Shown here: piece after piece, positions 12,309-64,000 of the stretch
How positions within the stretch are numbered: position 1 is the stretch's first letter
Layout: each line of letters begins with the position of its first letter
NCBI GenBank assembly: GCA_963281255.1
Contig: OY725491.1
Coordinates: forward strand, 4,948,857 to 5,012,856
Source of the DNA: Aphrocallistes beatrix
Lineage: Eukaryota > Porifera > Hexactinellida > Sceptrulophora > Aphrocallistidae
DNA length: 64,000 nucleotides
Direction of reading: 5' to 3'
The notes under the pieces: generated by a model
Database searches by the model: none
Seen by the model: the letters and a program-made list of their open reading frames with translations, nothing else
Told to the model about the DNA's origin: nothing
Translations under genes and position numbers: made by a program

Positions 12309-12520
12309 TCACATATAGACTTTCCCGTCTACCTCTGCGCTTTTGTCAGTAATCTTTCTGGCAGCATCACTCGGATGTTCAAAACCGCTGAAAGAACTCT
12401 CTTCAGGAATCTCACTTCCAAACGAATCCTTCTCAGCATCTTTAGGCGCCAGCATATCGTGGATGTTAGGTGATTGTATAGCTCCACCATCATCTTGAAC
12501 ATCAGAAGTACCCATTGGCT
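12309..12520 (-). CDS. Gene 1 exon 21: C-terminal tail and stop
   Basis: An acidic, disordered tail (GTSDVQDDGG, SPNIHDMLAPKDAEKDSFG, EESSFSGFEHPSDAA) ends VDGKVYM and TGA. It aligns with the gene 2 tail but lacks a block of about 44 residues with a proline-rich motif found there. Confidence 0.85.
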
Positions 12521-15500
12521 CTACAAGAATATACTTTTGTTACAAAATTTTTTAAATCTTCCGCAAATGTACGGCATATTCTGTTTATTACATAAATTTC
12601 TAATATCAGCAAAAACTTTCAATAGTGTTATTATTGAAAAGTATTTATGAAAGTGTTTTACGTGAATGCAAAAATTTGCATACTTTTGCAGATAAATTTT
12701 TTAAATGATTAGATTTTGCGAGCAACACAATATGGACACATCATAGAATGTATCGAACGGAAAGCAAATTTATTCATATATTTTTACTATATCCTTTGCA
12801 GCTACTTACCGAGTGGGAAATAATTTCCTTTCCTACTTGCTTCTCTCTGAGACGGAGATAATGTATCTGTTGTATCTCGTGACACAGAACTTTTGAACTT
12901 CTTACTCAACAAATCAGAAGATTTGTTTTCGGTACTTTCAGACATCAAAGAATATTCTCCTTTCTTCTTTTTCAACAATTTCTTAACTTCAGCATTTCGC
13001 ATGGTGATTACAAAGAAGAAAAAGATTCCCATTAGTCCATTGGTGATGATGAAACTCCATTGTACTATTGGGTCTACTATGAAAATGTTGAGTAGCAGGA
13101 TGATCCAAGGAATACCCAGTAATGGAGTCAAGATTAAAGTTGAGACAAGTGCAGTCTTGATCACTTGTTTCTCTTTCAGTTTTTCAGAATCAAAATTAGT
13201 AGTTGAAATCCGAATGACTGATATAACGAGTATAATCATGTTGGCAAGGATGATGGCTATAATTGGAGCGATAAAAGCCCAGATAATTCCATCTTCATAC
13301 GTCAAAAAGCAGTGTTGAGTTGTGTTCACGTAATTGCCATGTTTAATTGCGACTGTAATGATTGGAATAACGATAGGAAATGTCCAACCGAACACTATCA
13401 AGTATGGATATATCTTGTGCTGACTCATACCTAAAGGTTCAACTTTAAAATAAATTTCTACTTAAGCCTAGCTCATTATTATAAGCGTGAGTTTATTGCC
13501 ACCAATCGGTAGGTGTCAATAGCTACTTCATTATTATAATTAAATAGATATACTTTGATATATCTAGTTATAACAATTAATTAGCTCTACTAATATACAA
13601 AACATTTCCAACCAGAATCATTCCATTCTGGTACTCATAAACATACCATTCCACAAGCGCCTCATGCAGACACAAAGTGTTCACTAGCAGAGTAATTTAC
13701 CATGCGTAGTGCTGTTATAGATTTTGAACATTCATACTAGCATATTGAGATTACTTACCTGATGTCAGTTTGTAGATAATTAAGATTCCATTGCAGAGGG
13801 TCCACACAAACACAGAGAGCCAGAGATAATGGAGGAGAAATGCTATGATTTTGCACAAAATTTCGTTAAATTTCCCAGTCTCAATTCCAAATAGGAATAA
13901 TCCGAATGCTAATGTTAGCGACAGACAGTAGTTGAAATACACAATGTTTGCCTCTACCTTGAAGAACTTCTTACCACTAAGTATGAACAGGAATAGGGAT
14001 ACGATTAAGAAGATGAATGAGATCGATACAACTACATAACTGACGATAGATGCAATTCTATTATCAGGTCCTAAAGTTCTAGGAGTAACAAAGACTGCAA
14101 AACTTGTGAGATGGGATGATTCACAGTTTGTGAGATTGGCTGATCTTTGCTCTGTGGATAAACCGTCGATGACCCAACTTGTTCCATTCAGGAACACACA
14201 AGTACTTTCTGAAGGTTGGTTAGAATACACATCGAATGAGAATTTTGCCTAGAGATTACAAAGATCAGCAATGAATATATTCTAAAACGAACTTTATGAG
14301 TTTAGTAGTTTTGCGATCTAAACTTATTCACAAAACCAATTTATCTAAATCGTCGGAGTTTTGCACAGTTACTTGTTTTTGTTCCTCCCCACACACATTT
14401 CTTATATCAGTTGCTTTTTCTTTCTCAATTAGTATCAATCCAGTTCTACTACAAAATGTAAAATAACAATACACCAGGTAAAATCAGTTTTGGGAGGTAA
14501 TACAGTAATTTTAGGAATTTACCTGGAAAACTCCGATATTGTGTTCCAGAGTTTCAATTTTACTATGGGGAAACCCCTAATAGAATTAAAATTGAGAATT
14601 GGGATTTAGTGTGCCTTCTATACTATTATAAATCGGCCAAGACCTGCTTTATTTAAACAAGAAGATATGTATAAAATGGGAAGCACATTAAATGCAGATC
14701 TTTAGTGAAACGACACTTGTAAGTTTTTATTGTGTAATACTTTGTTGATTTTTTAACATAAACATCTTATAAAATCGAACTAACAGATAATTACCTATAT
14801 ATTTGTAAACCAATTGCCATGCATACGTGTGAATACTCCATTTTTCTGTCCATGACAAAATGACAACACGTTCATTGGTACTAATGAATTTATTTTGAAA
14901 TTCATAATATAAACTCACATTTTCTGTCAATTCAACTATCTCAGACTTTCCAGCTAGAGCGATAGTCAGAATGTCACTGCCTTGAGTAGGTTGACTGGAA
15001 TCCGATTCTTCAACCTCAATTCTTTTAACAATGGAGGTAGCAATCTTAAAATAAAAATTATTACAAAATGCAAATACATATACTTGTGTAGTATTAACAC
15101 ACGAGTTAGTGTACTCATGATTAATGCGATATTTATCGCAGTTTGAATTGTTTTAAAGAGGCTAGGGCCATTATAAACGGAGTCTATAAATCGTAACTCC
15201 AGAAAAGGCAGAACTCCTTAACCCGAGCACGTCCAGGAATGTTGAATTGAAAGTGAAAGTTAATTGAAAGTAAACTGAAAATGAAAGTGAAAGCTGGGTC
15301 ATTTCTATTTATACCTTTGACCCCAAGTAATCCTCGGGTTAAATCATCTGCGTCCAAAAGTATGCGTTCAAATTATTCTACATTTCAGATTATATGAATC
15401 CCAAAATGTGCGCAAAATTCGAGCCATACAGATGAATAATGCTCAGATTTAGTATCATCAATGAAATATTTTCCTGATAGTGGTTACTGACTTACCGCCA

Positions 15501-18500
15501 GACTTTTCCCATCAATCGATAGGATGACAGCAAGATTTGTTGAAAGTGTCATCATTACAGAATATTCCACATCATCATAATTCTTCACTGGAAGTTCGAT
15601 TTCAGTTTGTGTCCCTCCATCTTCACGGCTTTCTAGCTCAACGTTTTGTACCACAATCGTGATCAATTGAGACACAACCGTTTTGACAGAGTTAAGTTCA
15701 CTATTTGCTAACTCTTCACTCAGTCGCTGTGAAAACCTTTCCAGTGTGTTTAGTGTTATCGCCAAAGCTGAAGAAACAGTTGCAACTGCAGATTCCTCTC
15801 CCTGCAGATGAAAATTATAATTCACAATAGCAGAAGAATACTAACATCGCTTATGGTTTATGTATTTTATAAAGATATAATCAACAAAATTGGTAGGGAA
15901 TATAACCCATGCAAGCTTGATTATCAGTAAATAGTGCCTATACCACCCTCTAGCTACAAAGTACCTGTAACACAGTGGATTCTGATTCTTGTAAGACTGA
16001 ACTTCCGCTAACAATACTACTCAGTAAGTCCGTTATTTTCTCGGTTGTCTCGTTGCTGAATGTTCCATTAGTTTTTTCAACAATTGTTTGTGCAATCGTG
16101 GCTGCATTCTTAAATATTTTATTTTTTTCCTTATCATCAATTTCAGCATTATCATTTGACGCATCAATAACAACTTTAATCAAATCTGCAGTTTTCCCTG
16201 ATTTGTCATCAGAAATAAATTCAACCTCATCTAACTCATCCATAATACCGTCTAATGCACTTGTGATCTGTTCTTTTGTCAATTCAATCTTAAATGTTAC
16301 AGACACAACATCTCTTCCAGCTGAATTCTCTGCTACGCAATAGAAAACTCTGTTTGTGGATAGATCTGTGATGTTGATTTGGAGCATTGTTGAATCAATG
16401 AATTTTGTTGTGAGATCTCGTGACCAGTATATATCTGGTGTAGGGTCGCCAGTTGCAGTACATTCGATGCTTGGAATGTCTGTATCAATTCGATTTAATG
16501 TTTTAGTTATATTCATTCCGGGAGAAGTTATTTTTGGAGTTATTTCTGGGAGAAAAATAAAATTTAAGATACCTCAACTTTTATTTTAAAATCGTGAGGT
16601 TATCGACACCTAATCATGTTTATACTAGAAATACATTTTATTTTATAGTTTACCTATGGAAGAAGAGGTAGTTATAAAGTTAGATGTTGAGGTTGTTGTA
16701 GAGGCAGTGGGAACTGTTGTGGTTGAAGTAGTGAGAGTTGTTGTTGAAGGAGTTGATGAACTTGTGTTAGTGAGAATTGTTGTTGTTGTTGTTGAAGGAG
16801 TTGATGAACTTGTGTTAGTGAGAATTGTTGTTGTTGTTGTTGAAGGAGTTGATGAACTTGTGTTAGTGAGAATTGTTGTTGTTGTTGTTGAAGGAGTTGA
16901 TGAACTTGTGTTAGTGAGAATTGTTGTTGTTGTCGTTGAAGGAGTTGATGAACTTGTGTTAGTGAGAGTTGTTGTTGTGGCAGTGGAAGTTGTTGCTGTT
17001 GTGGTAGTGGGAGTTGTCATTGTTTCAACAGAACCACAAGTTATACTGACGTGCTCTCCACTACTACAGTCGTGTCTTAATGTGTGTGTGCACTCAAAAA
17101 TCGTTGATTCATTACCAATACAATCCACATTAACAAGTAGAAATGGATACAAAAGATTGTTTACTTCAACTCCGGTTTCATAACTAATCAAACTGTCTAA
17201 TCCCAGTTGTTTGCATACCACCTCACTCGCAATTCTGTTCCATCCATCATCACACACGTACCCCCACTGATTCAAATATATTTCTAGCACTCCCGAATCC
17301 TTGTTAGCCAATCGAATATGTCCATATGCTAAATATAATACGAGTATGTTTCATGATTTGCACCAAGAGCTATATCATAAAATTTAATGGATCTGGTAAT
17401 ACTATCACGAACAAACCTGGAGTATTGCATTGAAGTTGAACAACATTGTTAGATGGACATGATTCAATTGAAGAGGAACAATCACAAAGTGATGTCTCCA
17501 TTCCAGTGCATATGAATCTCCTCTCTAGTATCTGCAGTCCTGAAGTAAGGTCAGAGTTAGAGACATTTGAATAAGATAATGCTGTGGATCCTTCATTTTC
17601 TCGACACACGACATCTGCATTCTCTTGAGTAAATCCATCCATACACAAATGATACCATCCACCGGAATAATAGCGTACAATCTGAGGGAATGAAGCAGCA
17701 TTGGGGGCATAGGATTCACATCCATCTAAGTGATAATGAACGTTGAACCTTTAGGACTAATTTATACATTCAATGTATTCATTTTCATGCAAATTACAGC
17801 TCACATTCTATTAGAATTTCAGCCTTCTATCACCTAAAATGACTGAATTATAGTCGAAAAACTGATATATATATATACAGTGGATATCGGTTATAAGAAC
17901 ACCGGTTATAAGAACATATCGGTTATAAGAACCATTTATTTGGGAACGGATTCTTTTCTATTCATTCCTATTTAAACAGAACCGGTTATAAGAACATCTA
18001 ATATCGGTTATAAGAACATTCTATCAATAATTTCTAGAACTATTAGTAGTCAGGTTCTCATTTTTTCATTCATACACAACCAATTTTGTAATTTCTGACA
18101 TGTTCTTATAACCGACAATAGATGTTCTTATAAACGCTAAAAGGAACAAAATATGTTCTTATAACCGATAATAGATGTTCTTATAAACGATAAAAAGAAC
18201 GAAATATGTTCTTATAACCGAAATACTGTTATAAGAACATTTTTTTCAACTTCCGATGATGTTCTTATACCCGGTTTCCACTGTGTATTATAGTTTTAAT
18301 AGTAAAGATGAAATTGTTAGTTCATGAAAAATACTTGCTTACCAGGCTGACATGTTAAAGTTATTAAATAATGATTGTTGCAATGACTTGCTAGATGGTA
18401 TCTGCACTCTGATAGTTGGGTTTCATTACCAAAGCAGGCAAAATCGGTTACAAAATCATTACGGTTGTAGAAGTAGTCGGAATCATAAATAAATGTTGGA

Positions 18501-21500
18501 GAAAATGCATTTCTGTAACCAAGTTGTCTGCATGCCACGTCACTATCTCCAGTGTCCCATCTTCGAGAACAAATGTCTCTCCATTGGTTGTAATAGAACA
18601 AGGGTTTGTTTTGCAATGTCAAGCGTATTTGCCCTTGTTCTACAAAAATAAATTAATACAGATAACGTAAAATTGTTCTGAAGTTGTAAACTTAATAAGT
18701 CATCCATGAATATATCAAATATATGTATAAAATACTGCGAAATCATGATGATTTTAGCATATTTCGAAAATCTAAAGCTTTAGTGCAAATTTCAATAAAT
18801 CAGTTTGCTCTAGTGTCACAAAAATTGAGAATTACGACCGCCTGGAACCGGACACTTTTTCAAAACTGTGCACCAATAACCCATTCATTAGATTTGTTCT
18901 ACCAAAAGGACTATATAAAAAAATATTTTTAAAAGTGCTCAAAACGGGCCCAAATCTATAAATTCATATTAAATATATTGAGTAATGATATGATGAACAA
19001 TCTTCCAATGGACAAACGGATATAGTCTATATTTAACATCAGATCATTTTTTATAGACCAGGAATAAATCCTGATTTAGGGCTCAACCTAGAAATTTGGG
19101 ATGTATTAACTTTTTTGGTGGTTTTAAGTTCTTGGGGGTCTCCTTGACTAAAATTCAGTTTCTGCTACTTTTGCATATTTGGGTAATTTTTTTATACAAG
19201 CTCAACATTTGGGAGCGCCTGAATAATCCAGAAAATTACAGATTCAGGAAATCATACTAGATAATCATGTAGTGTGTTGATTTATGTTAATTTGAACTCG
19301 TGAAATATAAGGAGGCAAAACATAGGGTTACTCAATAGGGTCACTAGGAAGTTTGAGATTGGAATATTGCATATTCCTGCGTCGTCAAGGAAAATATTCT
19401 GCTCAAATATGACCATGTGATCCTTCAAATTTCGCTAAATTTAACGCTGAATACGAGTATCAACATTCAAACTAAATTGAGCATGTTTTGACTGGTCCAA
19501 CCAAGATTGGCAGGGATGGGCATTTACAGTATGTCCCAAACTATTGGCAATGAACTTTAACTTCGTGTAATATTAAACACAAGTGCCCATTGCTTGCTTG
19601 CGCTGGCGGACGCTTTGTGCCCGCCAGAGATGTCCTTCTGACGCCTTGGCTCATATTGATGAATTATAAAGTTGAAAACATTTCTAAATATGTCTGTCTT
19701 TTTGGTAAAATCGATATGTATATCACTCGAAAAATCACCAAATTTGTCAAATTTTCAATTTTAGATGCAGAATAGTGACGTCATAACAGAGTGATGAGTT
19801 ATCATTTTTGATAATAGTTGTATCATATATGAGATATATTAATATACACATTCTATTAAAATATCAGCCTTCTAGCACCTAAAGTGACTGAGTCATAAAA
19901 AACTGAAATTTCTGATAAGACAGGTGACAATAACGCCATAATTCCTTATTGAGTCGACATTTTCGTTTAAAGTCTAATGGAGCCTATAACCAAAAGGCTA
20001 TCACTTGCCAAAATCAGCTCTCTGCGTCTTCGTTGCAGATATATATATACTATAACGAATTGATCGAAGAAACTGTCAGACCCAGAAAGCTGATTTTTTG
20101 CATGTGAGAGTATTTTGGCTATGGTTCCAGTAAGTTCTGAGCTCAGACGAAAATATTGACTCATCATGGAATTATGACGTAATTGTAACCTTTTTTATAA
20201 TTAGAAATTTCAGTTTTGCGACTATAACTCGGCCATTTGGGCGATAGAAGGCTGAAATTTTAATTAATGTTTATATTAATATACCACACATATGATGCAA
20301 CTATAATAAAAAAATGATGACTCATCACTTTGTCATGACGGCATCATTACGAATCAAAAAGTTTTAAAAATTGACAAATTTGGTGGTTTTTCGTGCGATT
20401 TTGATTATAACTGTAAGACAGATGTATTTAGAGATGTTATCTCCCTTATAATTTATTAATGTGATCTCAGGCGCCCACAGGGCGCCTCTGGCGGACACAA
20501 AGTGTCCGCCAGCCGCGCAGTGCAAGCAATCGAATCGTGCTTGTTAGTATAATATTAGTAGTTACAAATTATCCTTCTTCTGTATCTTCCATAAAAATTC
20601 AAAATGAATTTCATAGTATTTTCCATTATTCTCTAGAACAAATGTAACGAATCTATAAAAAGAGCTCAGATAAGTAAGCTCTTTATTTTTTTGAAGCAGG
20701 CACAAGGACACATTATTCTTTAAATTTCATGGATGCTGTGGCGTGTTTGAATACACAAGAATTTTCTCCTAATTTGAGGAGCGTTCAACATTTTATATAT
20801 TAAAACACAATGAGTTTTTTGTTTGTGCAGAATTGATTGAAGAACTAGGAGGTGCTAGAAATGTGAAATTTGGCGCACAGGTAAAATCATGAGCCTATGA
20901 TTACTTTCGAAAGTTTTGAGCGAAATTTTCACATCTCGCTGAGATAGGTGATAGATTGTGCTGATCAATCAAAATCGATTATTTTATAATGCAAATACAT
21001 TATGATCAAACAGTAGTGATGGGCATGCCTAATTTTCGGGACGGGACGGGACCGTTCCGGAACATCTAGATACCTAATTTCCGAGACGTGACGGGATCCC
21101 GTCCCGGAAATTAGGTATCTTAACCCGTCCCGGAATTTTGGCATCTTAACTCGTCCGTCCCGGAAATTATGCATGCCCGTAGTGATTTATGCATGCAATC
21201 AGAAGACTATTTGTGATTGAAATTTATTGGTTCTTGTAAGAACCAATCAATTATCAGACTTTTATAATGCGATTCGCAAGATTCTATTTTATATAAATGA
21301 TTGAATAAGTTAATTATGATCAAATGATTGATCATAAGATATAACACACTTTAATTGCTGTTAACGACATGGACTGAAACTGGTTGATGTATAATAATTT
21401 TTAGTAATGTGGATTCAAATTGACTTTACTACATTCAGGTTTAGCTAAGTTACAACGAAGTAAATTCTATTTATCACGAACCTAAATTTTCTACTACAGT

Positions 21501-38269: not shown

Positions 38270-38328
38270 TTAAGAGAGTCATTAACGTTTGAGTTAGTCT
38301 AGGATATGTATAAAATTAGATGTAGTTG

Positions 38329-41028: not shown

Positions 41029-41396
41029 CTAGTCCAAACTCTGGTAGACTTTCTTGTCTACCTCTACGCTTTTGCCAGTATTTTGTTTAGTGGCATCACT
41101 TGGATATTCAAAACCGCTAAAGGAACTCTCTTGGGCAATCTCGGCGGATTTAGGCGAATCCTTCTCACCCTCAGTATCTTTAGGTGCCAGCATATCGTGG
41201 ATATTAGGTTGGTCAGGTTTTACAGTGAGTGGAATGTCATAACGTGTTTCTTGTCCCGACTCATCCCTGGAACTCTTTGACTTTGGTTTTGGGAGATTCT
41301 TTGGTCTAGGAGGAGTGTTATATCTTGAAGATATTGATCCTGTTGGTGATTTGGCTTCCCCACCATCATCTTGAACCTCAGAAGTACCCATTCGCT
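41029..41396 (-). CDS. Gene 2 last exon: long C-terminal tail
   Basis: GTSEVQDDGGEAKSPTG, then a proline/basic block with NTPPRPKNLPKPKSK, then PNIHDMLAPKDTEGEKDS and ESSFSGFEYPSDATK, ending VYQSLD and TAG. The PPRPKNLPKPK stretch resembles SH3-binding ligands. This block of about 44 residues is absent from gene 1. Confidence 0.85.
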
Positions 41397-50300: not shown

Positions 50301-51270
50301 GTTCAACCATCTTCTACCACATCCCTAGTCCAAAATCAGTTACTGCGATGCCTTATATGTTGTAGGCTATGGTTTTTGAATTTTAGCTACATACATATCA
50401 CTTTAGGTCTGTTGATACAGATTTTGATAATATAATTGTTATCACGAATACAAATACTAACAAACCTGTCATAAAATTCTGTTTTTCACTTGGAAGACTT
50501 GAACCATACACAGTAACAGCAGAAATTGTGACAAAATATTCTGTTTCTGGTTTTAAATATTGTATCAAGAAACTCGTATTAGAGGTTGTGATGTTATCTT
50601 TACAACCCATATCGTTTGATTTCGTAACACAGAGTAAATAGTTTAAAACAGGAAACATGTATTCCTGCCATTCTACCTCGATACTGTCAGCGTATGTACT
50701 GACAAGAATGGGTTGACTGACAAGTGGAAGTGATTCTAGAGGAATATCCATAATTATATAGAATTAATTTTGTAGAATTCACCAATAGTTACTTTTAGGA
50801 GTATTCTACCCATGCAGAGTTACTTTTAGGAGTATTCTACCCATTTTATGAAATATAAATAAGAAAAATCAAACAATTCCTGCACTATCTCCTTACTATA
50901 GCTTCATAATACCTATCTCGTAGTCAGAAACACTAATTAGTATTCTAAGCTGATTATTTTATACAAGCGCTTGCTTGCGCTGCGCGGCTGGCGGAGGCGC
51001 CCTTTGGGCGCTTGTGGTTACCATTGATTAATTATATGGGAGATGACATCTTTAAATACGTCTGTCCCACTGTTATAATCGATATCGCACGAAAAATCAC
51101 CAAATTTGTCAATTTAAAAAATTTTGATGAGTAATGATGACGTCATAACAAAGTGATGAGTCATCATTTTGCTCTGAGCTCAGAACTTAGTGGAGCCATA
51201 GCCAAAAGACTTCCACATGCCAAAAATCTGCTTTCTGCGCCTGGCAGTTTCTTCAATCAATTCGTTACAG

Positions 51271-51351
<81 letters not shown>

Positions 51352-57300: not shown

Positions 57301-60300
57301 TACTTCAAAAATATTAATTTCACGAACCTGTTGTAAATCCGCGTCTTTCACTTGGAGGGCTTGAACCATATTCAGTAATCGCAGTAATTGTAACAAAATA
57401 TTCTGTTTCTGGTTCTAGATTTTGTATCAAGAAATTTAAATTGTAGGTTATGAAGTTATTTTCACAGTTAACTTCGTTTGATTTCCTAACACAGAGTGAG
57501 TAGTTTGAAACAGGAAACACATATTCTTCCCATCTTATCTCTATGCTGTCTGCACTAGTGTTAACAAGACTGGGTGGATTGGCTCGTGGCAGTGATGCTA
57601 AAAATACATTAATTCTATAAAAAGTAATTTGTATTAAATCAACATGAACGATTAAATCGCTATAATTGATACTTATTTCATTTGATAATTAATTATACAA
57701 ATATGATGATGATATCTCTTTAGATATTGCACCTATACTTTATCAGTGTCATATAAATTAGTGATAAGAAAATTGAAAAGCAAATATTTTTGTCCTTTTG
57801 TATAGAATTAGAACATGAAAGGTCAGTGTATGAAACGCTTTAGGCCTGTTAATACATATTTTTGCGATCGGGATTTCAAATGTATTCGCAAACCTGTAAT
57901 AAAATTCTGTTTTTCACTTGTCGGACTTGTTCCATATTCAGTAACTGCTGCACTCGTCACAAAATATTCTGTTTCTGGTTCTAAGTTCGGAATCAAGAAG
58001 CTCGTGTTTGAGGTTATGAAATTATAATTACATCCAATTTCGTTTGATTTCGTAACACAGAGTGAATAATGTAAAACAGGAAAGATGTACTCTTGCCATC
58101 TTATCTTTATACTGACTGCGTTTCTGTTGACTAAAATAGGTGGACTTGCTGGTGGGAGTGGTGCTAAGGAAATATTTATTGATTAATTAATTGGTATACA
58201 TAGTAGTATTTAATAATCTCTTCAGAGGCTTTATGACATTGAGAAGGTCTCCAAACTGTTCGCGCCTTCTAACAGTTTTAAACATTTATTTTTTATCTTA
58301 TTTTAACTTTTATGTTAAATAACATTTTATAATATTGATGGATAAATAAACTTCACACCTGTTGTGAATTCCAAAGGTACACTGAAAGGACCCACTCCAA
58401 TCGAATTACTCGCTCTGATCTTTACACTATACGTAGTGTTAGGTTGCAATCCTGTCTTTCGAAATTGAAACGATATAGCTTGAGTTATGAAAGATGTGTT
58501 GCAGGATAAAGTAATGAAACTCTCGAAACAGATATCAAATTTAGTAATCAACCCGTTTCGTTTATCCAAGTCTGGTTGTTCCCATTCTAGTTCAACATAC
58601 AGTGGCTCAATAGAAGTCACTCGGATGTTTAGCGGAGGTCCACTCGGAGCTAAAAAATAATATATAAAAATAACCATTAATTAGTTAAGACTTTTGCAAA
58701 AAGAGCAGTATAATATTTTTTTAAATATTTTTATAAGAAGTCTTAACAAAATTGAAACCGAATATTGACATTTCGGCTAAACTCATTATTATTTGGTGAA
58801 TACACAGTTGATACTCGATGGCCAACCGAATATCAATATTGGTATTTGGTAAGACACAAGTACTGATATCAGGTTCGATTTTGAACCTTGGTTCTTACCT
58901 GTTTCATCTGTTCTGATAAATACTGATTCTCCTTGCGGCCCAAATCCTATCGAATTCTTAAGCAATATTCTGAAAGCGTAGATAGTATACGGTCTGAGAT
59001 TCCCAACTGAATAATAACGTGATCTGACATTTTGATCGATATAATTCAACTTAATTTGCTTGGTAGTATCAGAAGTATTTGTTGCAATACGGAGGTAATA
59101 GCTAAGATTCATGTTTTCTTCACTTATAGGATAATTATAGTCCCATCTGAGCAAGATTCTATATGGATCAGTTCTTACTCCCTTCAAATTTTCGACATTA
59201 AAGCGAGGAACTAAGTAAGAAAAGGAAGATAAATGTTAATATTATAATAAATCAATAAACTATGAGAGAGATTACCTTGTGGATTATTACATGACACCAA
59301 TAAGCTCTGTTGGCATCCAAATATGGACATGTAATCATACGTAAAAGCAACTTGGCATTGACCAATATTGTCAGTTACCGAATTACACGTTATTCCTGCA
59401 AATATATTGCTACTTTCAGTTCCACCAGTTATACCATTTGCTGTCTCAAATCCGAATAATCTGCAAATCTCACCATAATTAAGATTAGCAATTGAACAAA
59501 TCGGAGCCCAAATGTGTTGGGGACTTAGGATCTGAACTTTGTAGTAACCATCTACTTCAGAAGATGGTATCAAACGCATTTCGTCTAAAAAGGAAAAATT
59601 ATAATACATAAATTTGCTCTCAATCACATTAATGGCTAAACTTACTGAATGATGGTCTACAATATACTTTCAAAGGACTGAAAGGCTGTCTACATTCAGA
59701 CATTCGCTGAGGCTCTGATATTTCTAAACAGTTTCCTTCAGATAGAGTCGTTTCATTTCCATTACAATTGAATGTACTATTCCAATAATAATGATCTATG
59801 TTATTTGCATAGTTTATGTTATTCCATTTCCCACCATTTAAACCTAAATCATTACAAATTACACTGACATCTCCCTGTGTAAACTCTTGACTGTTTATAC
59901 AAGCAAGACCCCAGGAGTTAGAAGCATATATATCAACAATTCCATTTTCTGAGGAGCCATATCTTAGAGAAGGTGTTTCATCAGCTATAAAGAGATTAAT
60001 TATTCAAATTTGAAACATATAATCGGCCAGGCCTATATTCAAGTACATATAGTATGACAGTATCTCGATCTTTTTGCAACACAAAATATTCATTCGATTT
60101 AAAATTTGAGAATTGACATTGATACATCAAATTGTTTGTATGAAATAGCATAATGTCTCAATGGTGAGTTAGTACGATAATTTTTGTTCATATAGAATAT
60201 AATCAATGAGAAAACGTACTGTAATTGCACGCAGTCACAATACGTACTGTATTATAGCCGTAAATAACTAAGATGAACTTACAAGGTCGAGTACAAATGA

Positions 60301-63300
60301 GATATAATTCATAATCAGACTCGCATGTGGTCTCTTTCACTTCTTCAGTATAGCAAGATTGGAGATTCTCTTCATTACCAAAGCATCCATAATCATTTGT
60401 TAGGAATCTGTTCCCAGATTTTGGTATAAGAAAACCACGCTGAAACCGAGTGGATGCTCCAAAAGAATGACACAATGCGTCAAGAATATTGACACCAATA
60501 ACATCGTTAGAGATGCATAGTTTGTACCAATTATCATTAAAAAATATGTTAGGTACTCCTTGAAAATCGGAAGAAGATCGGGTGAAAATGACGTCATTCA
60601 GTTCTATAAACAACCAAATTTAATTACTAACCTAAGTTGTTTTAGTATTTCGTGGCTACATAAGTTCACTTACAAAACTGTCTTCCCAAAATTAGATTTT
60701 TACTTTTTAGTGATTTTGTATTGAGTTCACATTTTCGCAAGAAATAAAATTTGTCATGAGACAATGCATCTAATCTACACAGCTGGATTTTGCAATTCCA
60801 AGATTATGATTCTAGTAAATTTCAGTATTATAGACCGTACTTACTATAAGGTTCACAGTCTACCCATAAAGGATTTCTGCTACAAAAAGACTCTGTCCAA
60901 TTGAATCTGCATTCACTGATAGAATTTTCTTTGCCAGTGCAGTTTGGGTACATCATCCAAGAAAATGTTTTGCCTTTTCCAACATAGTATTCTATCCTAT
61001 TGATGTCACTACTGACAGATGGTCCAGAATAGAAATTATAGACTCCTTTATGACCAAGTTGTTTGCAGGCGACATGTGCAGTTAAGAAGTTTATATTCGA
61101 ATTTTCCTCTAAACAGATTCCCTTCCATTGTTCCAAATGATTAATGAAGACGAATCCATTGTGTTTGCTGGTTCCTGGGATCAAAGTTAGCTTTCCCTCT
61201 TCTACAAAAGTTGATATAAGAAAAACAGTTAGAATTATAATGTTAATTTTGTACTAAGAACTAACCAGCTCTGCATTTGACTTTAACAATAGAACTAGAA
61301 GGGCAAGTACTTGTACGTCTCTCCTTACTGCAAGCACATAATGATTCCTCATCTCCATTACATCTAAATAGGTAGGGAAATATTTCCTTATCTAAAACTC
61401 CACTCTTTATTTCTGATGAATATTGCTCCACTGTTGATTGAGTGTTTTCGCGGCATGTTACATTTGCATTTTCCAGAGTAAAACCCTCACTGCAGATATA
61501 GAACCAATTCGATTCTGAGTAGAATTCGACTACAGTTGAATTTGCATCTGCAAAAGGAGCGTAGGATTCACAGCCATCTGAGAAAATATGCAAATATTTT
61601 TAACTTATAACTCAAATTTCAAAATTACTTGTTGCTAAATATCCAGAAATATACATTTGGAAATTTCTTTTCTGTATATTTATGAGCAAATGATTACATA
61701 ATCTAGTTATGGATCAAAAATCAATTGCTATTATTTCCGATATTTCTATAACATATAAGGTAACCAGAGGCATAGCCTACTGTATATAAGGCCTCACAGT
61801 AACTTGCGGATTTGGGACTAGGGATGCGGAGGAAGACCGTTGAACTAATACATGAGTTGCCTTAAATCATTTACAAAGCACAATAGAGTTTAGTTATGTA
61901 TTATCAGCATATATAAATATGGTGTCAAAGTACCCATATCCGTTGTTAAAAATTTGATTAGCCACCATATGGTTGCGCAATAGGTTATATTTGTGACAAA
62001 TTTGGTGATTTTCAGAGGCCGTTTAGGGGCACTTCTAAGTGTTTTTACTGTAAAATTTTTCGCATAGAACTGAGATGTGAATGGGTTAATACGAAAAATT
62101 TGGAATTTTTTCATGGAATGTTGGTACATTCCAGTGTTGCTATGGAAACGTGTTTTGGTCAGTTGGCGTTATATCTTGAAAACTTCAATGGCTACACATT
62201 CGAATGTAATTCCATTTGATAGCGAATATACTACTTCCTATTAAGTGATAATATAATTTCGACGTCTAAATTCAATGGTTTACGAGATATTCGATAATGT
62301 ACCATATTGGTCACATTTGATAAATTTTCGAATATCTCGTAAACCATTGAATTTAGACGTCGAAATTATATTATCACTTAATAGGAAGTAGTATATTCGC
62401 TATCAAATGGAATTACATTTGAATGTGTAGCCATTGCAGTTTTCAAGATATAACGCCAACTGACCAAAACACGTTTCCATAGCAACACTGGAATGTACCA
62501 ACATTCCATGAAAAATTCCAAATTTTTCGTATTAACCCATTTACATCTCAGTTCTATGCGAAAAATTTTACAATAAAAACACTTAGAAGTGCCCCTAAAC
62601 GGCCTCTGAAAATCACCAAATTTGTCACAAATATAACCTATTGCGCAACCATATGGTGACTAATCAAATTTTTAACATTGGATATGGGTACTTTGACACC
62701 ATATTTATATATGCTGATAATACATTCCTAAGCTCTATTGTGCTTTGTAAATGATTTAAGGCAACTCATGTATTAGTTCAACGGTCTTCCTCCGCATCCC
62801 TAGTCTCAAATCCGCAAGTTACTGTGAGGCCTTATATACAGTAGGCTATGCCAGAGGATTTTAAATGAAATACTTCATTTACTCTGAAAAAAACTCGATG
62901 ACATTGTATAAAAAACTGAACAAAAAACTAGACTACGAGGGACTGTCCCCTCCGGCCTACTTTTAAAGATGTTGATCTGACCTCAGAAGTGAGGCCAAAT
63001 CCACCAATTAAATTGAAGCTGTCCTCGGCTAGAGGGGTATAATATAGTAATTCTTTTAGAAGGATTTAGTACGCATTGAATAATACTATATTGCGACAGT
63101 ACGAAGTATCAATTAAATTATGTGCTTTTAAGATTTATAGCTAGATGGTGGTGAGGCAGTGGGTCACTGGACCACTCTACTTTCATGGGAAAATATGAAA
63201 GCTCTACTCCTATGGCCCCATGTCCCACACACCCTGTAACGCCTGCAGCAAGCATCAATCTTAAATACTGAGTCAGTACATACCTTCTTTACAATGGATC

Positions 63301-64000
63301 TCGATGTGTTCATTTGCGTTGCAATCATGTCCATTGCGAGTATTACATTCCAATAAGCTTGATTCATTGCCAATGCATATAATATCGTCGATGTGAAACT
63401 CATTTGTTGCCTGCGCTACTCCATAAGAAAAGGACTCCGCACGCCGAAATCCCAATTTCCTACACGCCACATCTGTTGCTGCCAAACTCCAGAAATCGTC
63501 GCAGATATGACCCCATTTATTTTGATAGAATATCTCCAGTAGTCCATTGTTTGAATTATTTGGTAGCCGAAGATCCCCATCATCTAAATAGTCAATAAAG
63601 CGTACATAGGTTAAGAAACTAGTATCTACATAATTACTACATGATACGAGAATAAATTCAATATCTTAATTCTTGATCCATTTGAATCTAACCATAAATT
63701 TTAGTAATATTGAAACAATATAGGATCAATAATAGACCAGTAATTTACAGAGATAAAGTCAGGATGGATTTTAATACAGAAACCTACCATATTGACAGGT
63801 GATGTTAATGAGCTGTTGGCAAGATGCGGGAAGTGTGGTGTACGTACAGTTGAGAATGTTAGTTTCATAGCCTCTACAACGAACATTATCAATCTCAGTT
63901 CCAAACACGAAGCGAGGGATTAATAGAGTTTGTTTTCCAGATCCATATCCCAATATTTTGCAAATGACATCGGAATTAATGCCATTCCATCCAGTGCCGC
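41029..64000 (-). CDS. Gene 2 (5' end beyond window): adhesion GPCR with SRCR array, 20 fibronectin III domains, Ig, GAIN/GPS and 7TM
   Basis: A paralogue of gene 1 with a different ectodomain. Visible order: eight SRCR-type domains (the first cut by the window edge), 20 FN3 domains, one Ig domain, GAIN, GPS, seven helices and a cytoplasmic tail. The 33 exons total 10133 nt and stay in one frame (at least 3376 residues). All SRCR and FN3 exons are phase 1-1. As in gene 1, HLTSFAVFV marks the predicted self-cleavage and tethered agonist. FN3 tandems are typical of long adhesive stalks. Exon ends were placed by eye from GT/AG and phase. The signal peptide and further SRCR exons must lie past 64000. 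Confidence 0.85.
41397..42353. other. Gene 2 last intron
   Basis: AT-rich intron of about 950 nt between the 7TM exon and the tail exon. I see no element or coding match. Confidence 0.5.
42354..42977 (-). CDS. Gene 2 exon: TM4-TM7 and start of the cytoplasmic tail
   Basis: IVFGWTFPIVIPIITVAIKH, QHCFLTYEDG, LILTPLLGIPWIILLLN, FIITNGLMGIFFFFAITM and the KKLLKKKKGEYS juxtamembrane run. One codon longer than gene 1 at the start (an extra Ile). About 90% identical to gene 1 by eye. Confidence 0.9.
43142..43631 (-). CDS. Gene 2 exon: GPS motif and TM1-TM3
   Basis: MKLIFPVPRN, VCSFLDDAYW, TDCYTDHLTSFAVFVTP, then TM1-TM3 almost as in gene 1 (NIVYFNYCLSLTLAFGLFLF and LCKIIAFLLHYLWLSVFVWT). It has the same 490-nt length and phases as gene 1. 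The part before the HLT site is quite different, the part after it nearly identical. Confidence 0.88.
43799..43933 (-). CDS. Gene 2 exon: GAIN strand exon
   Basis: A 45-codon phase 0-0 exon: IATTIINTMEIRSET through QKIKLPKP, with donor GTGAGT. It is paired with gene 1 exon 18 by place, phase and the IAT.I start. Confidence 0.65.
44053..44364 (-). CDS. Gene 2 exon: GAIN domain, middle part
   Basis: Phase 0-0 exon of 104 codons: VLLTTLNTVESIASNAAQNL, then AKTITVIAQNINLPKIDS and ENFGILSSNNRTLK. It matches gene 1 exon 17 in position, phase, length and the TLNT.E.....A..L pattern, though few residues are shared. Confidence 0.75.
44526..44713. mobile_element. pogo/Tigger-like MITE (188 bp), CAGTCRACTCCGC family
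   Basis: Inverted repeats CAGTCGACTCCGCTTAATAG at both ends, TA flanks, and inner arms that also pair (ATAGGGCCAC, GGACCCTATTAACCGAAAA). Confidence 0.88.
45010..45584 (-). CDS. Gene 2 exon: Ig-like domain and start of GAIN
   Basis: Same design as gene 1 exon 16 (phase 1 to 0). Ig marks are NQECTAEGFPQPTVTWSGDL and LRFICNATNSEGSDIKIVNI. A helical acidic region with many Asn-x-Ser/Thr sites follows. Overall identity to gene 1 is low, in contrast to the 7TM exons. Confidence 0.82.
45904..46182 (-). CDS. Gene 2 exon: FN3 domain 20
   Basis: LPSPKKPILASKSKDSAKIE, WDYYSFLVSGYKLCYIK, DLEPGTKYSVTITAITKPNG and LMFDTPRG. It is the membrane-proximal FN3, directly before the Ig exon. Confidence 0.84.
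46305..46577 (-). CDS. Gene 2 exon: FN3 domain 19
   Basis: APLPQPSLPTIVKTNRSDSI, IKWEEYMFPAKNYSLCVIG, NLELDTNYSVTITVFTDIG, ending IPFAIG. Phase 1-1, 91 codons. Confidence 0.84.
46578..47161. other. Gene 2 intron, FN3 18-19 interval, left part
   Basis: AT-rich intron with no recognised element or coding match. Confidence 0.45.
47162..47432 (-). mobile_element. Helitron-like element (271 bp), both ends present
   Basis: On the minus strand A|TCTTATATATTAAAACGCTA ... GCGAAGCAGGCTTG|T. It shares the 3' hairpin region with the 36525 copy but has a different 5' part, the usual Helitron mosaic. Confidence 0.82.
47526..47798 (-). CDS. Gene 2 exon: FN3 domain 18
   Basis: APFPQPSQPTLVDGPNPDKV, TIEWEEYMSNVSNYSLCVTK, LRAATNYSVTIVAIIE, ending LAFTTG. 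The last three FN3 exons are more diverged and look older than the K/R/S/P repeats. Confidence 0.84.
48173..48442 (-). CDS. Gene 2 exon: FN3 domain 17 (type S, divergent)
   Basis: PLPSPIQPFIIDANACSMKI, RWEEYKFPVLYYSLCVSKVN, DLEPETEYFITIAAYTEYR, ending TRGFTEG. Phase 1-1. Confidence 0.84.
48668..48937 (-). CDS. Gene 2 exon: FN3 domain 16 (type R)
   Basis: ASLPRANPPSLVNTSADSIE, NYSLCVRKSNEVDCENTF, NLEPETEYFVTITAITEYG, ending RRGFTTG. Its neighbouring intron, on the 5' side, holds a palindromic element and a nested Helitron-like copy. Confidence 0.87.
49186..50371. mobile_element. Palindrome-family element split by a Helitron-like insert
   Basis: Ends CATAGCCTAG and GTAGGCTATG. The flanking 7 bp are AGTTTTG/GTTTTTG, similar but not equal. 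Near its centre a Helitron-like copy (49636-50023) is inserted; the right arm has lost part of its sequence. Confidence 0.83.
49636..50023 (-). mobile_element. Helitron-like element (388 bp) nested in a palindrome-family copy
   Basis: Minus strand A|TCTTATATATTAAAATGCTA ... GCGAAGCGCACTTG|T. Removing it rejoins AATAGCCAA with TAGACTACTTC, which matches the uninterrupted 38844 copy. This confirms both ends and insertion between A and T. Confidence 0.88.
50466..50735 (-). CDS. Gene 2 exon: FN3 domain 15 (type K)
   Basis: SLPLVSQPILVSTYADSIEV, EWQEYMFPVLNYLLCVTKSN, YLKPETEYFVTISAVTVYG and SEKQNFMTG. The opening has diverged but the K ending and intron are kept. Confidence 0.86.
50964..51349 (-). 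mobile_element. Helitron-like element, first of a tandem pair, 5' end missing
   Basis: 3' end ..GCAAGCGCTTG|T, then family sequence up to a TA microsatellite of about 75 bp, where the next copy begins. Its own TC..TATTAAAA 5' end is absent. Confidence 0.75.
51262..51347. repeat. TA dinucleotide microsatellite
   Basis: An almost pure TA run of about 80 bp at the joint of two Helitron-like copies; its place equals the TA run of other family members, so it is an expanded internal repeat. Confidence 0.9.
51350..51909 (-). mobile_element. Helitron-like element (560 bp), second of a tandem pair
   Basis: Minus strand A|TCCTTACTATTAAAACTCG ... GCGAAGCGCGCTTG|T with both hairpins. Very similar to the 36525 copy. 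Its 5' end lies nine bases downstream of the splice donor of FN3 exon 14. Confidence 0.83.
51919..52188 (-). CDS. Gene 2 exon: FN3 domain 14 (type S)
   Basis: PLPSPIQPILVDRDAVSIEI, EWQEYLFPVFNYSLCVTKSN, NLEPETEYFVTISAVTEYG, ending RVGFTTG. The donor is GTTCGT, and a Helitron-like 5' end starts nine bases after it. Confidence 0.87.
52403..52672 (-). CDS. Gene 2 exon: FN3 domain 13 (type P)
   Basis: Has no ATG-led open frame and is easy to miss. From the TAG acceptor it reads SLPPANPPIFVNKSANSIEI, RWNEYRYPVLYYSLCVVKSN, DLEPETEYYVIVKAVTRYR and RRGFITG, open for 90 codons in phase 1-1. Two P-type exons follow one another here. Confidence 0.84.
52742..52926. mobile_element. pogo-like MITE (185 bp), CAGTCAGG family
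   Basis: Inverted ends CAGTCAGGTTCGCTTATTAT (two or three mismatches) with TA on both sides. Inner TTAATATGAA repeats. In the intron between FN3 12 and 13. Confidence 0.83.
52995..53264 (-). CDS. Gene 2 exon: FN3 domain 12 (type P)
   Basis: SLPSANPAIFLNRSANSIEI, RWHEYMYPVLYYSLCVVKSN, DLESETEYFVTVSAVTEHG and RRGFTTG. Phase 1-1. Confidence 0.87.
53412..53681 (-). CDS. Gene 2 exon: FN3 domain 11 (type S)
   Basis: SLPSPIQPTLVDRDAVSIEI, FPVLHYSLCVTKSNGIGC, NLKPETEYFVTISAVTKHG, ending KSRFITG. Very like FN3 5. Confidence 0.87.
53779..54225 (-). mobile_element. Helitron-like element, 3' truncated
   Basis: 5' end A|TCTTATATATTAAAATGCTA, a (GTTT)n stretch and TTGTCCGAAATGATTGAAGA on the minus strand. 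Homology ends near 53779 without the hairpin 3' end. Confidence 0.72.
54443..54712 (-). CDS. Gene 2 exon: FN3 domain 10 (type K)
   Basis: PLPSPIQPILVDRDAVSIEI, FPLLNYLLCVTKSNEMGC, DLEPETEYLVTIVAVTVYG and EEQNFMTG. The downstream intron matches that of FN3 15 over at least 60 bp. Confidence 0.87.
54936..55205 (-). CDS. Gene 2 exon: FN3 domain 9 (type S)
   Basis: PLPSPMQPTLVDRDAVSIEI, EWQEYLFPVFNYSLCVTKSN, NLEPGTEYFVTISAVTEYG, ending RTGFTTG. Phase 1-1, donor GTTCGT. Confidence 0.87.
55423..55692 (-). CDS. Gene 2 exon: FN3 domain 8 (type R)
   Basis: ASLPRANPPSLVNTSADSIE, then NYSLCVRKSNEVDCENNF and NLEPDTEYFVAITAITEYG. Nearly the same as FN3 4 and 16, and the upstream intron is recognisably shared with both. 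Confidence 0.87.
56058..56327 (-). CDS. Gene 2 exon: FN3 domain 7 (type K)
   Basis: PLPSPIQPTLVDRDAVSIEI, EWQEYLFPVSHYLLCVTKSN, VTVYGSSPTSEKQNFMTG. It has an S-like opening with the K-type ending and intron, so it may be a hybrid formed by unequal exchange. Confidence 0.87.
56435..56704 (-). CDS. Gene 2 exon: FN3 domain 6 (type P)
   Basis: The opening PLPPANPPVFVNRSANSIEI defines subtype P. RWNEFMFPVLHYSLCVVKSN and DLEPETEYSITVEAVTGYG follow. Phase 1-1. Confidence 0.87.
56839..57108 (-). CDS. Gene 2 exon: FN3 domain 5 (type S)
   Basis: SLPSPIQPVLVDRDAVSIEI, EWQEYLFPVFHYLLCVTKSN, YLEPETEYFVTVSAVTKHG. Subtype S, with the SPIQP..VDRDAVS opening. 90 codons, phase 1-1. Confidence 0.87.
57328..57597 (-). 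CDS. Gene 2 exon: FN3 domain 4 (type R)
   Basis: ASLPRANPPSLVNTSADSIE, IRWEEYVFPVSNYSLCVRKS, NLEPETEYFVTITAITEYG. The RANPPSLVNT opening defines subtype R (also FN3 8 and 16), and the intron before it is also shared. Confidence 0.87.
57894..58163 (-). CDS. Gene 2 exon: FN3 domain 3 (type K)
   Basis: A 90-codon FN3 exon: SIKIRWQEYIFPVLHYSLCV, NLEPETEYFVTSAAVTEYG and SEKQNFITG. By its ending and downstream intron it belongs to the K subtype (also FN3 7, 10 and 15). Confidence 0.85.
58359..58649 (-). CDS. Gene 2 exon: FN3 domain 2
   Basis: APSGPPLNIRVTSIEPLYVE, LEWEQPDLDKRNGLI, FDICFES..LSC, LQPNTTYSVKIRASNSIGVG and PLEFTTG. A textbook FN3 start and end. It already has the extra Cys pair seen in all later repeats. 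Confidence 0.86.
58899..59210 (-). CDS. Gene 2 exon: FN3 domain 1
   Basis: An FN3 domain with RILLRWDYNYPISEENMN, LSYYLRI, LRPYTIYAFRILLKNSIGFG and a threonine-rich end. One of the two most ordinary FN3 domains of the array. Phase 1-1, donor GTAAGA. Confidence 0.82.
59276..59584 (-). CDS. Gene 2 exon: last SRCR-type domain before the FN3 array
   Basis: DEMRLIPSSEVDGYYKVQIL, WAPICSIANLNYGEICRLFG, then CNSVTDNIGQCQVAFTYDY and SCNNPQ. Divergent but with SRCR spacing. The donor is GTAATC in phase 1. Confidence 0.75.
59646..59984 (-). CDS. Gene 2 exon: divergent SRCR domain
   Basis: Easily missed. Read from a TAG acceptor it gives PSLRYGSSENGIVDIYASNS, WGLACINSQEFTQGDVSVIC, NDLGLNGG, CNGNETTLSEGNC and VYCRPSF, then GTAAGT. 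It is open through 113 codons in phase 1-1, in line with its neighbours. Confidence 0.8.
60283..60603 (-). CDS. Gene 2 exon: divergent SRCR-like domain
   Basis: NDVIFTRSSSDFQGVPNIFF, WYKLCISNDVIGVNILDALC, HSFGAS, CFGNEENLQSCYTEEVKETC and LICTRP. The LC..D.LCHSFGAS stretch stands where VACRQLGY is usual. The donor is GTAAGT. Confidence 0.78.
60845..61201 (-). CDS. Gene 2 exon: SRCR domain
   Basis: A longer canonical SRCR (119 codons): EGKLTLIPG, WKGICLEENSNINFLTAHVA, CKQLGHKGVY, CTGKENSISECRFNWTESFC and VDCEP. The donor is GTAAGT. Confidence 0.84.
61266..61577 (-). CDS. Gene 2 exon: SRCR-like (variant) domain
   Basis: The same variant class as in gene 1: DGCESYAPFADANSTVVEFY, WFYICSEGFTLENANVTCRE, CNGDEESLCACSKERRTSTC and VKCRAG. 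The donor is GTTAGT. Confidence 0.86.
61771..62850. mobile_element. Palindrome-family element (1080 bp, best preserved)
   Basis: Two arms of about 530 bp, nearly identical when inverted, around a short centre near 62310. Ends CATAGCCTACTGTATATAAG. Perfect 7-bp duplication CCAGAGG at 61764-61770 and 62851-62857. No open frame. Lies in a gene 2 intron. Confidence 0.92.
62858..63283. other. Gene 2 intron remainder
   Basis: About 430 nt between the palindromic element and an SRCR exon; no element or coding match recognised. Confidence 0.4.
63284..63583 (-). CDS. Gene 2 exon: SRCR domain
   Basis: Canonical SRCR: DGDLRLPNNSNNGLLEIFYQ, WGHICDDFWSLAATDVACRK, LGFRRAES, CIGNESSLLECNTRNGHDC and IHCKEG. 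Phase 1-1, donor GTATGT. Confidence 0.88.
63788..64000 (-). CDS. Gene 2 exon: SRCR domain, cut by window edge
   Basis: C-terminal two thirds of an SRCR domain: GWNGINSDVICKILGYGSG, CRGYETNILNCTYTTLPASC, ITCQYG. The donor is GTAGGT. The first part lies beyond the window. Confidence 0.85.

What the first reader, a model, noticed from the sequence alone, without database searches (positions are those of the whole stretch)
12309..64000. Tandem adhesion GPCRs with different giant ectodomains on one shared signalling module
Gene 1 (14 SRCR-type domains plus mucin stalk) and gene 2 (at least 8 SRCR-type plus 20 FN3 domains) end in the same Ig-GAIN-GPS-7TM-tail unit. SRCR proteins are known innate immune and aggregation receptors in animals, and sponges carry large SRCR sets. 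Direct fusion of such arrays to a self-cleaving 7TM receptor, in a cluster with inverted and decayed relatives, looks like a fast-evolving recognition locus. A role in self/non-self or microbe sensing is inference.
Basis: partly seen in the sequence, partly recalled or inferred. Interest (0 to 1): 0.85.

Follow-up and report, generated by a model that had tools for sequence, protein, structure and literature searches.

The report
Mosaic sponge adhesion receptors sharing one motor
Two giant cell-surface receptor genes of a sponge carry very different outer parts on nearly the same membrane-signalling half, and one of them looks like a natural splice of two receptor types joined where such receptors cut themselves, which shows how an animal can build new sensors by swapping outer ends.

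Summary
On the minus strand lie two open adhesion-GPCR genes. Gene 1 (window 38269-12309, about 2400 aa): signal peptide, 14 SRCR, mucin stalk, Ig, GAIN-GPS, 7TM-tail. Gene 2 (64698-41029, about 3427 aa, starting 698 bases beyond the window): 7 SRCR (6 by Pfam, 1 divergent; not 8 or more) and 20 FN3. All 41 SRCR/FN3 exons are symmetric phase-1 units. Only the half after the GPS cut is the same (97% aa in TM1-3, 90% in TM4-7); Ig-GAIN is about 30% alike. Gene 1 looks recombinant: just before the HL|TSFAV self-cleavage motif it matches one receptor lineage (82-89% DNA, four copies); from there, through introns, tail and 2.3 kb of 3' flank, it matches another (86-95% DNA in TM1-3, six copies), with synonymous divergence falling from 1.7-2.0 to 0.16-0.32 (g3 aside). 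Tree-topology tests alone are not significant. The genes sit in a 0.95-Mb cluster with 31 places holding the TM1-3 exon. Nearest named relatives, in the glass sponge Oopsacas minuta, carry FN3+cadherin or C-type-lectin ectodomains. SRCR adhesion GPCRs and chimeric ones (EMR2) are known: a new variant of a known kind. Sensing of microbes or self is inference.

The parts
38200..38269 (-). gene 1 signal-peptide exon (MSEKLFFITLLIFGWLTNEVQSQ)
   Evidence: only candidate found in 35.6-41.0 kb; homologue of the gene 2 exon
16654..35563 (-). gene 1: 14 SRCR exons (35563-35255, 33364-33029, 28137-27820, 27313-26990, 26739-26440, 26303-26007, 25926-25612, 25545-25219, 24982-24671, 22887-22558, 21985-21674, 18639-18343, 17725-17417, 17328-16654); domains 2-14 alternate between 6 and 8 cysteines
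16654..17024 (-). Thr/Ser-rich mucin-like stalk in the same exon as SRCR 14, five 48-base repeats
14919..16545 (-). gene 1 Ig plus GAIN (exons 16545-15965, 15840-15496, 15044-14919), lineage II type
13759..14248 (-). gene 1 GPS and TM1-3 exon; H codon of HL|TSFAV starts at 14113
10000..14113 (-). segment of gene 1 (GPS codon to 3' flank) colinear with copy C at C4:5714061-5718226; its upstream end lies at the cleavage motif
12309..13430 (-). gene 1 TM4-7 exon (13430-12810) and tail exon with stop (12520-12309)
59276..64000 (-). gene 2: 7 SRCR exons (64081-63788, 63583-63284, 61577-61266, 61201-60845, 60603-60283, 59984-59646, 59584-59276, the last divergent); the first exon and the signal-peptide exon (64698-64629) run or lie beyond the window
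45904..59210 (-). gene 2: 20 FN3 exons, all symmetric phase 1-1
43799..45584 (-). gene 2 Ig plus GAIN (exons 45584-45010, 44364-44053, 43933-43799), lineage I type
43142..43631 (-). gene 2 GPS and TM1-3 exon; H codon of HL|TSFAV starts at 43496
41029..42977 (-). gene 2 TM4-7 exon (42977-42354) and tail exon with stop (41396-41029)
1666..6537 (-). decayed receptor pieces (TM4-7 at 1666-1803 and 5719-6099; GPS piece 6406-6537)
8748..9850 (+). decayed SRCR pieces on the other strand

Best explanation
The stretch holds two open adhesion G-protein-coupled receptor genes of a glass-sponge-like animal, members of a clustered family built from exchangeable blocks: (i) a signal peptide and a distal array of one-exon, phase-1 SRCR or FN3 units, (ii) an Ig-GAIN block ending at the self-cleavage motif, and (iii) a conserved 7TM-tail half. 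Shown by sequence: gene 1 joins a lineage II Ig-GAIN-GPS block to a lineage I 7TM half, with the change-over at the HL|TSFAV cleavage motif; its SRCR array is largely colinear with that of another receptor (g3) which carries the lineage I Ig-GAIN, and its signal-peptide segment matches gene 2. Inferred: ectopic recombination (unequal crossover or long conversion tract) between clustered paralogues made it, and the motif tolerates a join because it is nearly invariant and the GAIN domain packs against a conserved tethered agonist. Inferred: the array binds a surface or ligand, GAIN cleaves itself at HL|T, and pull or shedding exposes TSFAVFVTP to switch the 7TM half. The 7TM core is under strong purifying selection and the outer half much less, as expected of many sensors feeding one pathway.
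For: Gene structure: 41 of 41 SRCR/FN3 exons have AG/GT borders, phase 1 and length divisible by 3 (borders, nine of them and the end of the mucin exon chosen by eye); both models are open to the stop. Families; solved relatives ADGRD1 and ADGRL3, with stretches reaching into GAIN in ADGRL3, ADGRG2 and ADGRG6. Recombination: gene 1 DNA identity to four lineage IIb copies is 82.2-88.9% before the H codon (135 nt) and 61.6-65.8% after it; to six lineage I copies 43.9-48.5% before and 86.3-95.0% after. In 12 of 12 parent pairs the best breakpoint lies between nt -2 and +20 of the H codon (9 inside the motif, 3, all with copy A, just before it), 0 of 20000 permutations each. With same-amino-acid codons only, 19 of 20 pairs give Fisher p<0.05 (pairs not independent, only 4-8 such sites before the codon). 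dS of gene 1 to g2, A-D: 0.16-0.32 in TM1-3 and 0.17-0.22 in TM4-7, against 1.7-2.0 in Ig-GAIN exon 1. Ig-GAIN exon 1 of gene 1 is 76% aa identical to two lineage II copies, about 30% to lineage I. Non-coding: similarity to copy C runs from the H codon over introns, tail and 3' flank to window 10000, with no match further upstream in the module.
Against: Topology tests do not settle it. AU tests did not reject lineage I without gene 1 (p 0.157, 0.175) or IIb without gene 1 (p 0.219), nor any of four other groupings, among them gene 1 with IIb in TM1-3 (p 0.27) and gene 1 with lineage I in the GPS half (p 0.349). The best-supported splits of the two segments are compatible with each other. So the case, and which gene is the recombinant, rest on identity, synonymous distance and non-coding homology. 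IIb copies were read only in the TM1-3 exon; their Ig-GAIN is known from identity values alone. The conserved motif can itself set an alignment edge: g0, with no special claim, shows the same edge against lineage I. g0 and four other copies (5846, 5854, 5862, 5875 kb) also pair a II-like GPS half with a nearer-to-I 7TM half, so older exchanges, or a replaced outer half in lineage I, are possible. Of the Oopsacas proteins P0015 pairs II with IIb-like TM1-3 (73-75 against 64-66%), but P0016's TM1-3 is about equally near to both (68 and 63 against 63-64%). Pfam's GAIN model did not match at E 0.01, gene 2's GPS scores 21.3 against a 22.5 cut-off, Ig is under cut-off. No transcripts, cleavage or binding data; one assembly.
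Confidence: 0.76

Rival explanations
1. No recombination: gene 1 is an ordinary paralogue whose 7TM half stayed alike by purifying selection while its outer half diverged.
For: The 7TM core is under strong constraint (mean dN/dS 0.08 in TM1-3), and seven AU tests are not significant.
Against: Synonymous sites and non-coding DNA show the same jump: dS 0.16-0.32 in TM1-3 against 1.7-2.0 in Ig-GAIN exon 1 for g2 and A-D, 3' flank and introns alignable on one side only, and the GPS-N half is 87-89% DNA-identical to three IIb receptors whose TM1-3 is only 62-64% identical.
Confidence: 0.06
2. The join in gene 1 is an assembly error between repeated paralogues.
For: The cluster is repetitive and only one assembly is held.
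Against: Neither half is identical to any copy compared (best 95% and 89% DNA), the frame stays open across the join, and the join coincides with a functional motif.
Confidence: 0.06
3. The SRCR or FN3 arrays belong to separate genes and not to the receptors.
For: No transcripts; introns up to about 4.9 kb; an SRCR array with no receptor found behind it exists nearby on the other strand.
Against: One signal-peptide candidate per gene, unbroken phase-1 chain into the Ig exon, mucin stalk in the last SRCR exon leading to it; Oopsacas proteins annotated by others fuse other arrays to a related half.
Confidence: 0.08
4. The receptors serve tissue adhesion, patterning or mechanosensing rather than recognition of microbes or of self.
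For: Many vertebrate adhesion GPCRs act in adhesion and contact guidance (review passages); FN3 arrays are general adhesion modules (general knowledge).
Against: About 31 clustered copies with exchanged and less constrained outer halves are more than a fixed developmental role seems to need; this is argument, not test.
Confidence: 0.4

Closest known systems
SRCR-bearing adhesion GPCRs Aq712029 and Aq715659 of Amphimedon queenslandica (Krishnan et al. 2014, PMC4302439; passages read)
   Same: SRCR repeats in front of a 7tm_2 adhesion GPCR in a sponge
   Different: No cluster of them, giant FN3 array, mucin stalk or recombinant at the cleavage site appears in the passages read
SRCR-containing adhesion GPCRs of amphioxus (PMC2246102; passages read)
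   Same: SRCR in an adhesion GPCR outer end; domain shuffling suggested there
   Different: Deuterostome; a recombinant at the cleavage site is not described in the passages read
EMR2/CD97/EMR3 (ADGRE) of mammals (Kwakkenbos 2006, cited as 'receptor chimera' with gene conversion in PMC2720389, passages read; the paper itself is not held)
   Same: Adhesion GPCR with outer part like one paralogue and 7TM part like another (this detail recalled, not read)
   Different: EGF domains, two or three genes, mammals; here SRCR/FN3 arrays, about 31 copies, and the change-over is at the GPS codon
Oopsacas minuta P0015 and P0016
   Same: Nearest named relatives of the GPS-7TM region (56 and 55% identity), GPS present
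   Different: Ectodomains are FN3 plus cadherin (3327 aa) and C-type lectin plus Ig (1596 aa), no SRCR match
ADGRD1 and ADGRL3 (solved structures)
   Same: GPS/7TM, and for ADGRL3 part of GAIN, align
   Different: Distant sequence; unrelated ectodomains (general knowledge)

Membership tests
Adhesion GPCR (class B2) | 7tm_2 domain | tested here: met
   108.0 and 118.8 bits against a cut-off of 20.6
Adhesion GPCR (class B2) | GPS motif with HL|T/S cleavage residues | tested here: met
   HLTSFAV in gene 1 and gene 2; Pfam GPS 27.2 bits (gene 1, over 22.5) and 21.3 (gene 2, just under)
Adhesion GPCR (class B2) | GAIN domain | tested here: inconclusive
   No Pfam GAIN match at E 0.01; a four-sequence profile aligns into GAIN with ADGRL3, ADGRG2 and ADGRG6 chains
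Adhesion GPCR (class B2) | self-cleavage and tethered-agonist signalling | not testable with these tools
   needs protein
SRCR superfamily | SRCR domain with 6 or 8 cysteines | tested here: met
   Gene 1: Pfam SRCR 522.8 bits, 13 stretches; gene 2: 6 of 7 over cut-off, 1 without a match; 6 or 8 Cys in 21 of 21
FN3 | Pfam fn3 over cut-off | tested here: met
   20 of 20 exons
EMR2-like chimeric adhesion GPCR | outer and 7TM halves with different closest paralogues | tested here: met
   AU topology tests not significant
EMR2-like chimeric adhesion GPCR | orthology to ADGRE | tested here: not met
   best solved relatives are ADGRD1 and ADGRL3, best proteins are sponge; no tree with ADGRE was built; works like it, not filed as a member
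Allorecognition or immune receptor locus | polymorphism among individuals and specificity of response | not testable with these tools
   one assembly, no expression

The most novel reading that the evidence does not exclude
The cluster is a receptor-diversifying locus: ectopic recombination at a nearly invariant self-cleavage codon, ahead of the Ig exon and between one-domain phase-1 exons keeps recombining recognition arrays, force-sensing GAIN blocks and 7TM signalling halves, giving an early animal a germline combinatorial sensor repertoire for microbes or self.
Probability: 0.3. Interest if true: 0.88.

Novelty: new variant of a known kind. Interest (0 to 1): 0.66.

Why it matters
How adhesion GPCRs came by so many different outer ends is an open question, usually answered in general terms by domain shuffling. 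Here one exchange is caught with its change-over point, and it lies at the bond where the receptor divides into two proteins, so the exchange unit in the DNA equals the fragment unit in the protein. If the cluster is polymorphic, it would also give glass sponges, which are syncytial, a candidate set of recognition receptors that can be tested.

Tried and rejected
An eighth SRCR in gene 2: searched without filters in 61.6-63.26 kb and 64-70 kb, nothing above noise. Gene conversion limited to the exons: rejected, since introns and 3' flank of gene 1 also match copy C. Positive selection as a proven claim: rejected; mean dN/dS is 0.63 and 0.58 in Ig-GAIN, and dN exceeds dS in 0 and 1 of 10 pairs; FN3 reciprocal-best pairs pooled give pN/pS 0.43 over 11 pairs. 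Seven AU tests on the placing of gene 1 were run; none is significant. SRCR-7TM in the ctenophore Mnemiopsis: considered, dropped; in the legend passage read GPS/7TM go with the C-type-lectin panel. A placozoan source (small genome, 33% GC) was my first thought and was dropped after the Oopsacas matches. Which membrane-proximal SRCR the IIb receptors carry, and the spread of the gene 2 FN3 type, remain unknown: those searches did not complete (below). No structure prediction was made: the spliced proteins are not read letter for letter from one frame.

A first exon join of both models had wrong borders at the Ig exons and showed stops; corrected by splice signals. One search lost four segments to a wrong program option and was redone. 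One search stopped on a missing motif in one copy (it has HF, not HL) and was redone. My own domain profiles were seeded with the window's exons, so the independent test of the domains is Pfam.

Full report
Setting. The window is C4:4948857-5012856 of a 100.5-Mb genome in 28 contigs. The closest named relatives of the GPS-7TM region are two proteins of the glass sponge Oopsacas minuta (56 and 55% identity, E 3.9e-105 and 1.2e-102), then one of the demosponge Dysidea avara (33%) (taxonomy of Oopsacas). I take the animal to be a glass sponge or near one; the species is not established. A glass-sponge genome paper (passages read) gives 80 and 61 Mb for two species and many single-exon genes, which fits. 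In it and in the Oopsacas genome paper (passages and one section read) the terms SRCR and scavenger had no occurrence in the main text.

Gene models. Profiles built from the window's own exons placed 14 SRCR exons, Ig, GAIN, GPS-TM1-3, TM4-7 and tail exons in gene 1, and 7 SRCR, 20 FN3 and the same module exons in gene 2. As an independent test Pfam gives, for gene 1, SRCR 522.8 bits in 13 stretches, 7tm_2 108.0 and GPS 27.2; for the gene 2 module, 7tm_2 118.8 and GPS 21.3, just under the cut-off of 22.5. In gene 2, 20 of 20 FN3 exons and 6 of 7 SRCR exons pass; the seventh SRCR-like exon has no match at E 0.1. Ig is the best match of both Ig exons but under cut-off. Splice-site scoring gave AG and GT borders, phase 1 on both sides and a length divisible by three in 41 of 41 SRCR/FN3 exons; nine borders and the end of the mucin exon I chose by eye among possible sites. 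After correction of the Ig exon ends both models are open to the stop. One signal-peptide candidate was found upstream of each gene; the two are homologous, with similarity over 340 bases including flank. A profile of four modules aligns with solved ADGRD1, ADGRL3, ADGRG2 and ADGRG6, in the last three reaching into GAIN.

The cluster. Searching the whole genome with the gene 2 TM1-3 exon gave 31 places on C4 between 4.94 and 5.89 Mb: 27 in one open piece, 3 broken, 1 a GPS-only fragment (my count). The TM4-7 exon gave 31 places there, one decayed (in the window) and one split (my count). Both strands are used, in blocks. About 106 of the roughly 150 SRCR rows listed lie in the same part of C4 (my count by subtraction; only 150 of 308 candidates were scored). 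Dispersed relatives lie on C1, C6, C15 and C19 among others. I read 200 kb around the window, 40 kb at 5.68-5.72 Mb, 7 kb at 5.39 Mb (copy D) and four TM1-3 exons, so most of the cluster is known from search rows only. Ectodomains seen on lineage I 7TM halves: 14 SRCR plus mucin (gene 1), 7 SRCR plus 20 FN3 (gene 2), 8 SRCR (g3), at least 2 SRCR plus 19 FN3 (A), a single FN3 found (B, C).

The recombinant. blastn of gene 1 against the six lineage I copies stopped, in six of six, within one base of the H codon of HLTSFAV; against g0 it ran 138 bases further up. g0 shows the same stop against lineage I, so a conserved motif alone can set such an edge; the following tests separate the two. Against four IIb copies gene 1 is 82.2-88.9% identical before that codon and 61.6-65.8% after it; against six lineage I copies 43.9-48.5% before and 86.3-95.0% after. 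Informative-site tests for 12 parent pairs put the breakpoint between nt -2 and +20 of the codon, 9 inside the motif and 3 (all with A) just before it, 0 of 20000 permutations each. With same-amino-acid codons only, 19 of 20 pairs have Fisher p<0.05, the exception p=0.073; the pairs are not independent and few such sites (4-8) lie before the codon. dS between gene 1 and g2, A, B, C, D is 1.7-2.0 in the first Ig-GAIN exon, 0.16-0.32 in TM1-3 and 0.17-0.22 in TM4-7; to g3 it is 1.9, 0.62 and 0.60. Those five among themselves average 0.17-0.22 in the two Ig-GAIN exons, TM1-3 and TM4-7, and 0.44 and 0.36 in the short GPS half and the tail. Non-coding similarity to copy C, 740 kb away, runs from the H codon through introns and tail to window 10000, broken by short inserts, at 77-86%.

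What speaks against it. The starred splits of the two segment trees do not contradict each other as unrooted splits, and seven AU tests on the placing of gene 1 are not significant (p 0.157-0.349), including tests that hold it with the wrong parent. The case rests on synonymous and non-coding distances and on the site test. Oopsacas P0015 pairs a lineage II GPS half with IIb-like TM1-3; P0016 has the lineage II GPS half but a TM1-3 about equally near to both; two unnamed proteins, P0001 and P0002, pair lineage I TM1-3 (77-82 against 62-65%) with a weakly I-like GPS half.

More mosaic structure. g3 carries an SRCR array colinear with that of gene 1 (g3 domains 1, 3, 4, 5, 6, 7, 8 match gene 1 domains 1, 2, 3, 4, 9 or 11, 13, 14, at 35-75% aa; g3 domain 2 has no good partner there), but has the lineage I Ig-GAIN (58% to gene 2, 31% to gene 1). 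The inverted array at 4931-4939 kb matches gene 1 SRCR 1-8 at 61-89% aa, with one extra domain and no receptor found behind it in the DNA read. In gene 1, domains 2-14 alternate 6-Cys and 8-Cys. FN3 domains 1, 2, 18 and 19 of gene 2 match those of copy A in register; 14 of the 15 between do not, as expected of duplication inside the array.

Selection. Among g2, A, B, C, D mean dN/dS is 0.63 and 0.58 in the first two Ig-GAIN exons, 0.29 in the GPS half before the cut, 0.08 in TM1-3, 0.28 in TM4-7, 0.31 in the tail (six pairs for the tail, ten otherwise). That is weak constraint in the outer half and strong constraint in the membrane core; it does not prove positive selection.

Mechanism. Shown by sequence: architecture, cleavage motif, change-over at that motif. 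From general knowledge of adhesion GPCRs, also stated in a passage read: cleavage at the GPS exposes a tethered agonist. Inferred: the invariant motif is a place where halves of different lineages can be joined without spoiling either the cut or the agonist, so recombinants there survive.

What is known. SRCR in adhesion GPCRs: amphioxus 2008 and Amphimedon 2014 (passages read). Chimeric adhesion GPCR with gene conversion: EMR2 (cited in passages read; original not held). My paper searches for SRCR with adhesion GPCR, glass sponge with GPCR, and adhesion GPCR with gene conversion listed no title or abstract start reporting a recombinant joined at the GPS; this is limited to open-access text and to these terms, and I opened only some of the papers. 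In the protein search 0 of 5 long relatives carried an SRCR domain by the precomputed list (E 1e-10, 1272 candidates).

Verdict.

Noticed in passing
window 29907-30775: 44-base minisatellite, 19.8 copies, in a gene 1 intron; it overlaps the local rise in GC (0.41).
   Followed up: partly
window 15218-15342 and C4:5704704-5704828: A 125-base piece in a gene 1 intron is 100% identical to one in copy B, 740 kb away: probably a recent mobile insertion.
   Followed up: no
window 4988-5430: About 440-base interspersed repeat with several copies (76-88% over the full length) in the gene 2 region; likely a non-autonomous mobile element.
   Followed up: no
C4:4931255-4939132: Nine SRCR exons on the plus strand, colinear with gene 1 domains 1-8, with no receptor module found behind them: a truncated inverted copy or an SRCR protein of its own.
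   Followed up: partly
C4:5413761-5457013: Dense plus-strand SRCR array with no TM1-3 or TM4-7 match listed after it until 5.67 Mb.
   Followed up: no
C4:5226310, 5268143, 5303072, 5368013: Four cluster copies with TM1-3 only 47-49% like gene 2, each with fn3 hits upstream: perhaps an older branch inside the cluster.
   Followed up: no
C19:2152523-2163412: Adhesion-GPCR-like 7TM and repeated FN3 domains in one open frame of 5186 codons elsewhere in the genome.
   Followed up: no
C12:0.76-0.78 Mb, C17:0.56-0.58 Mb, C18:0.12-0.13 Mb: Further SRCR arrays outside the cluster.
   Followed up: no
window 51271-51347: AT microsatellite of 38.5 units in a gene 2 intron.
   Followed up: no
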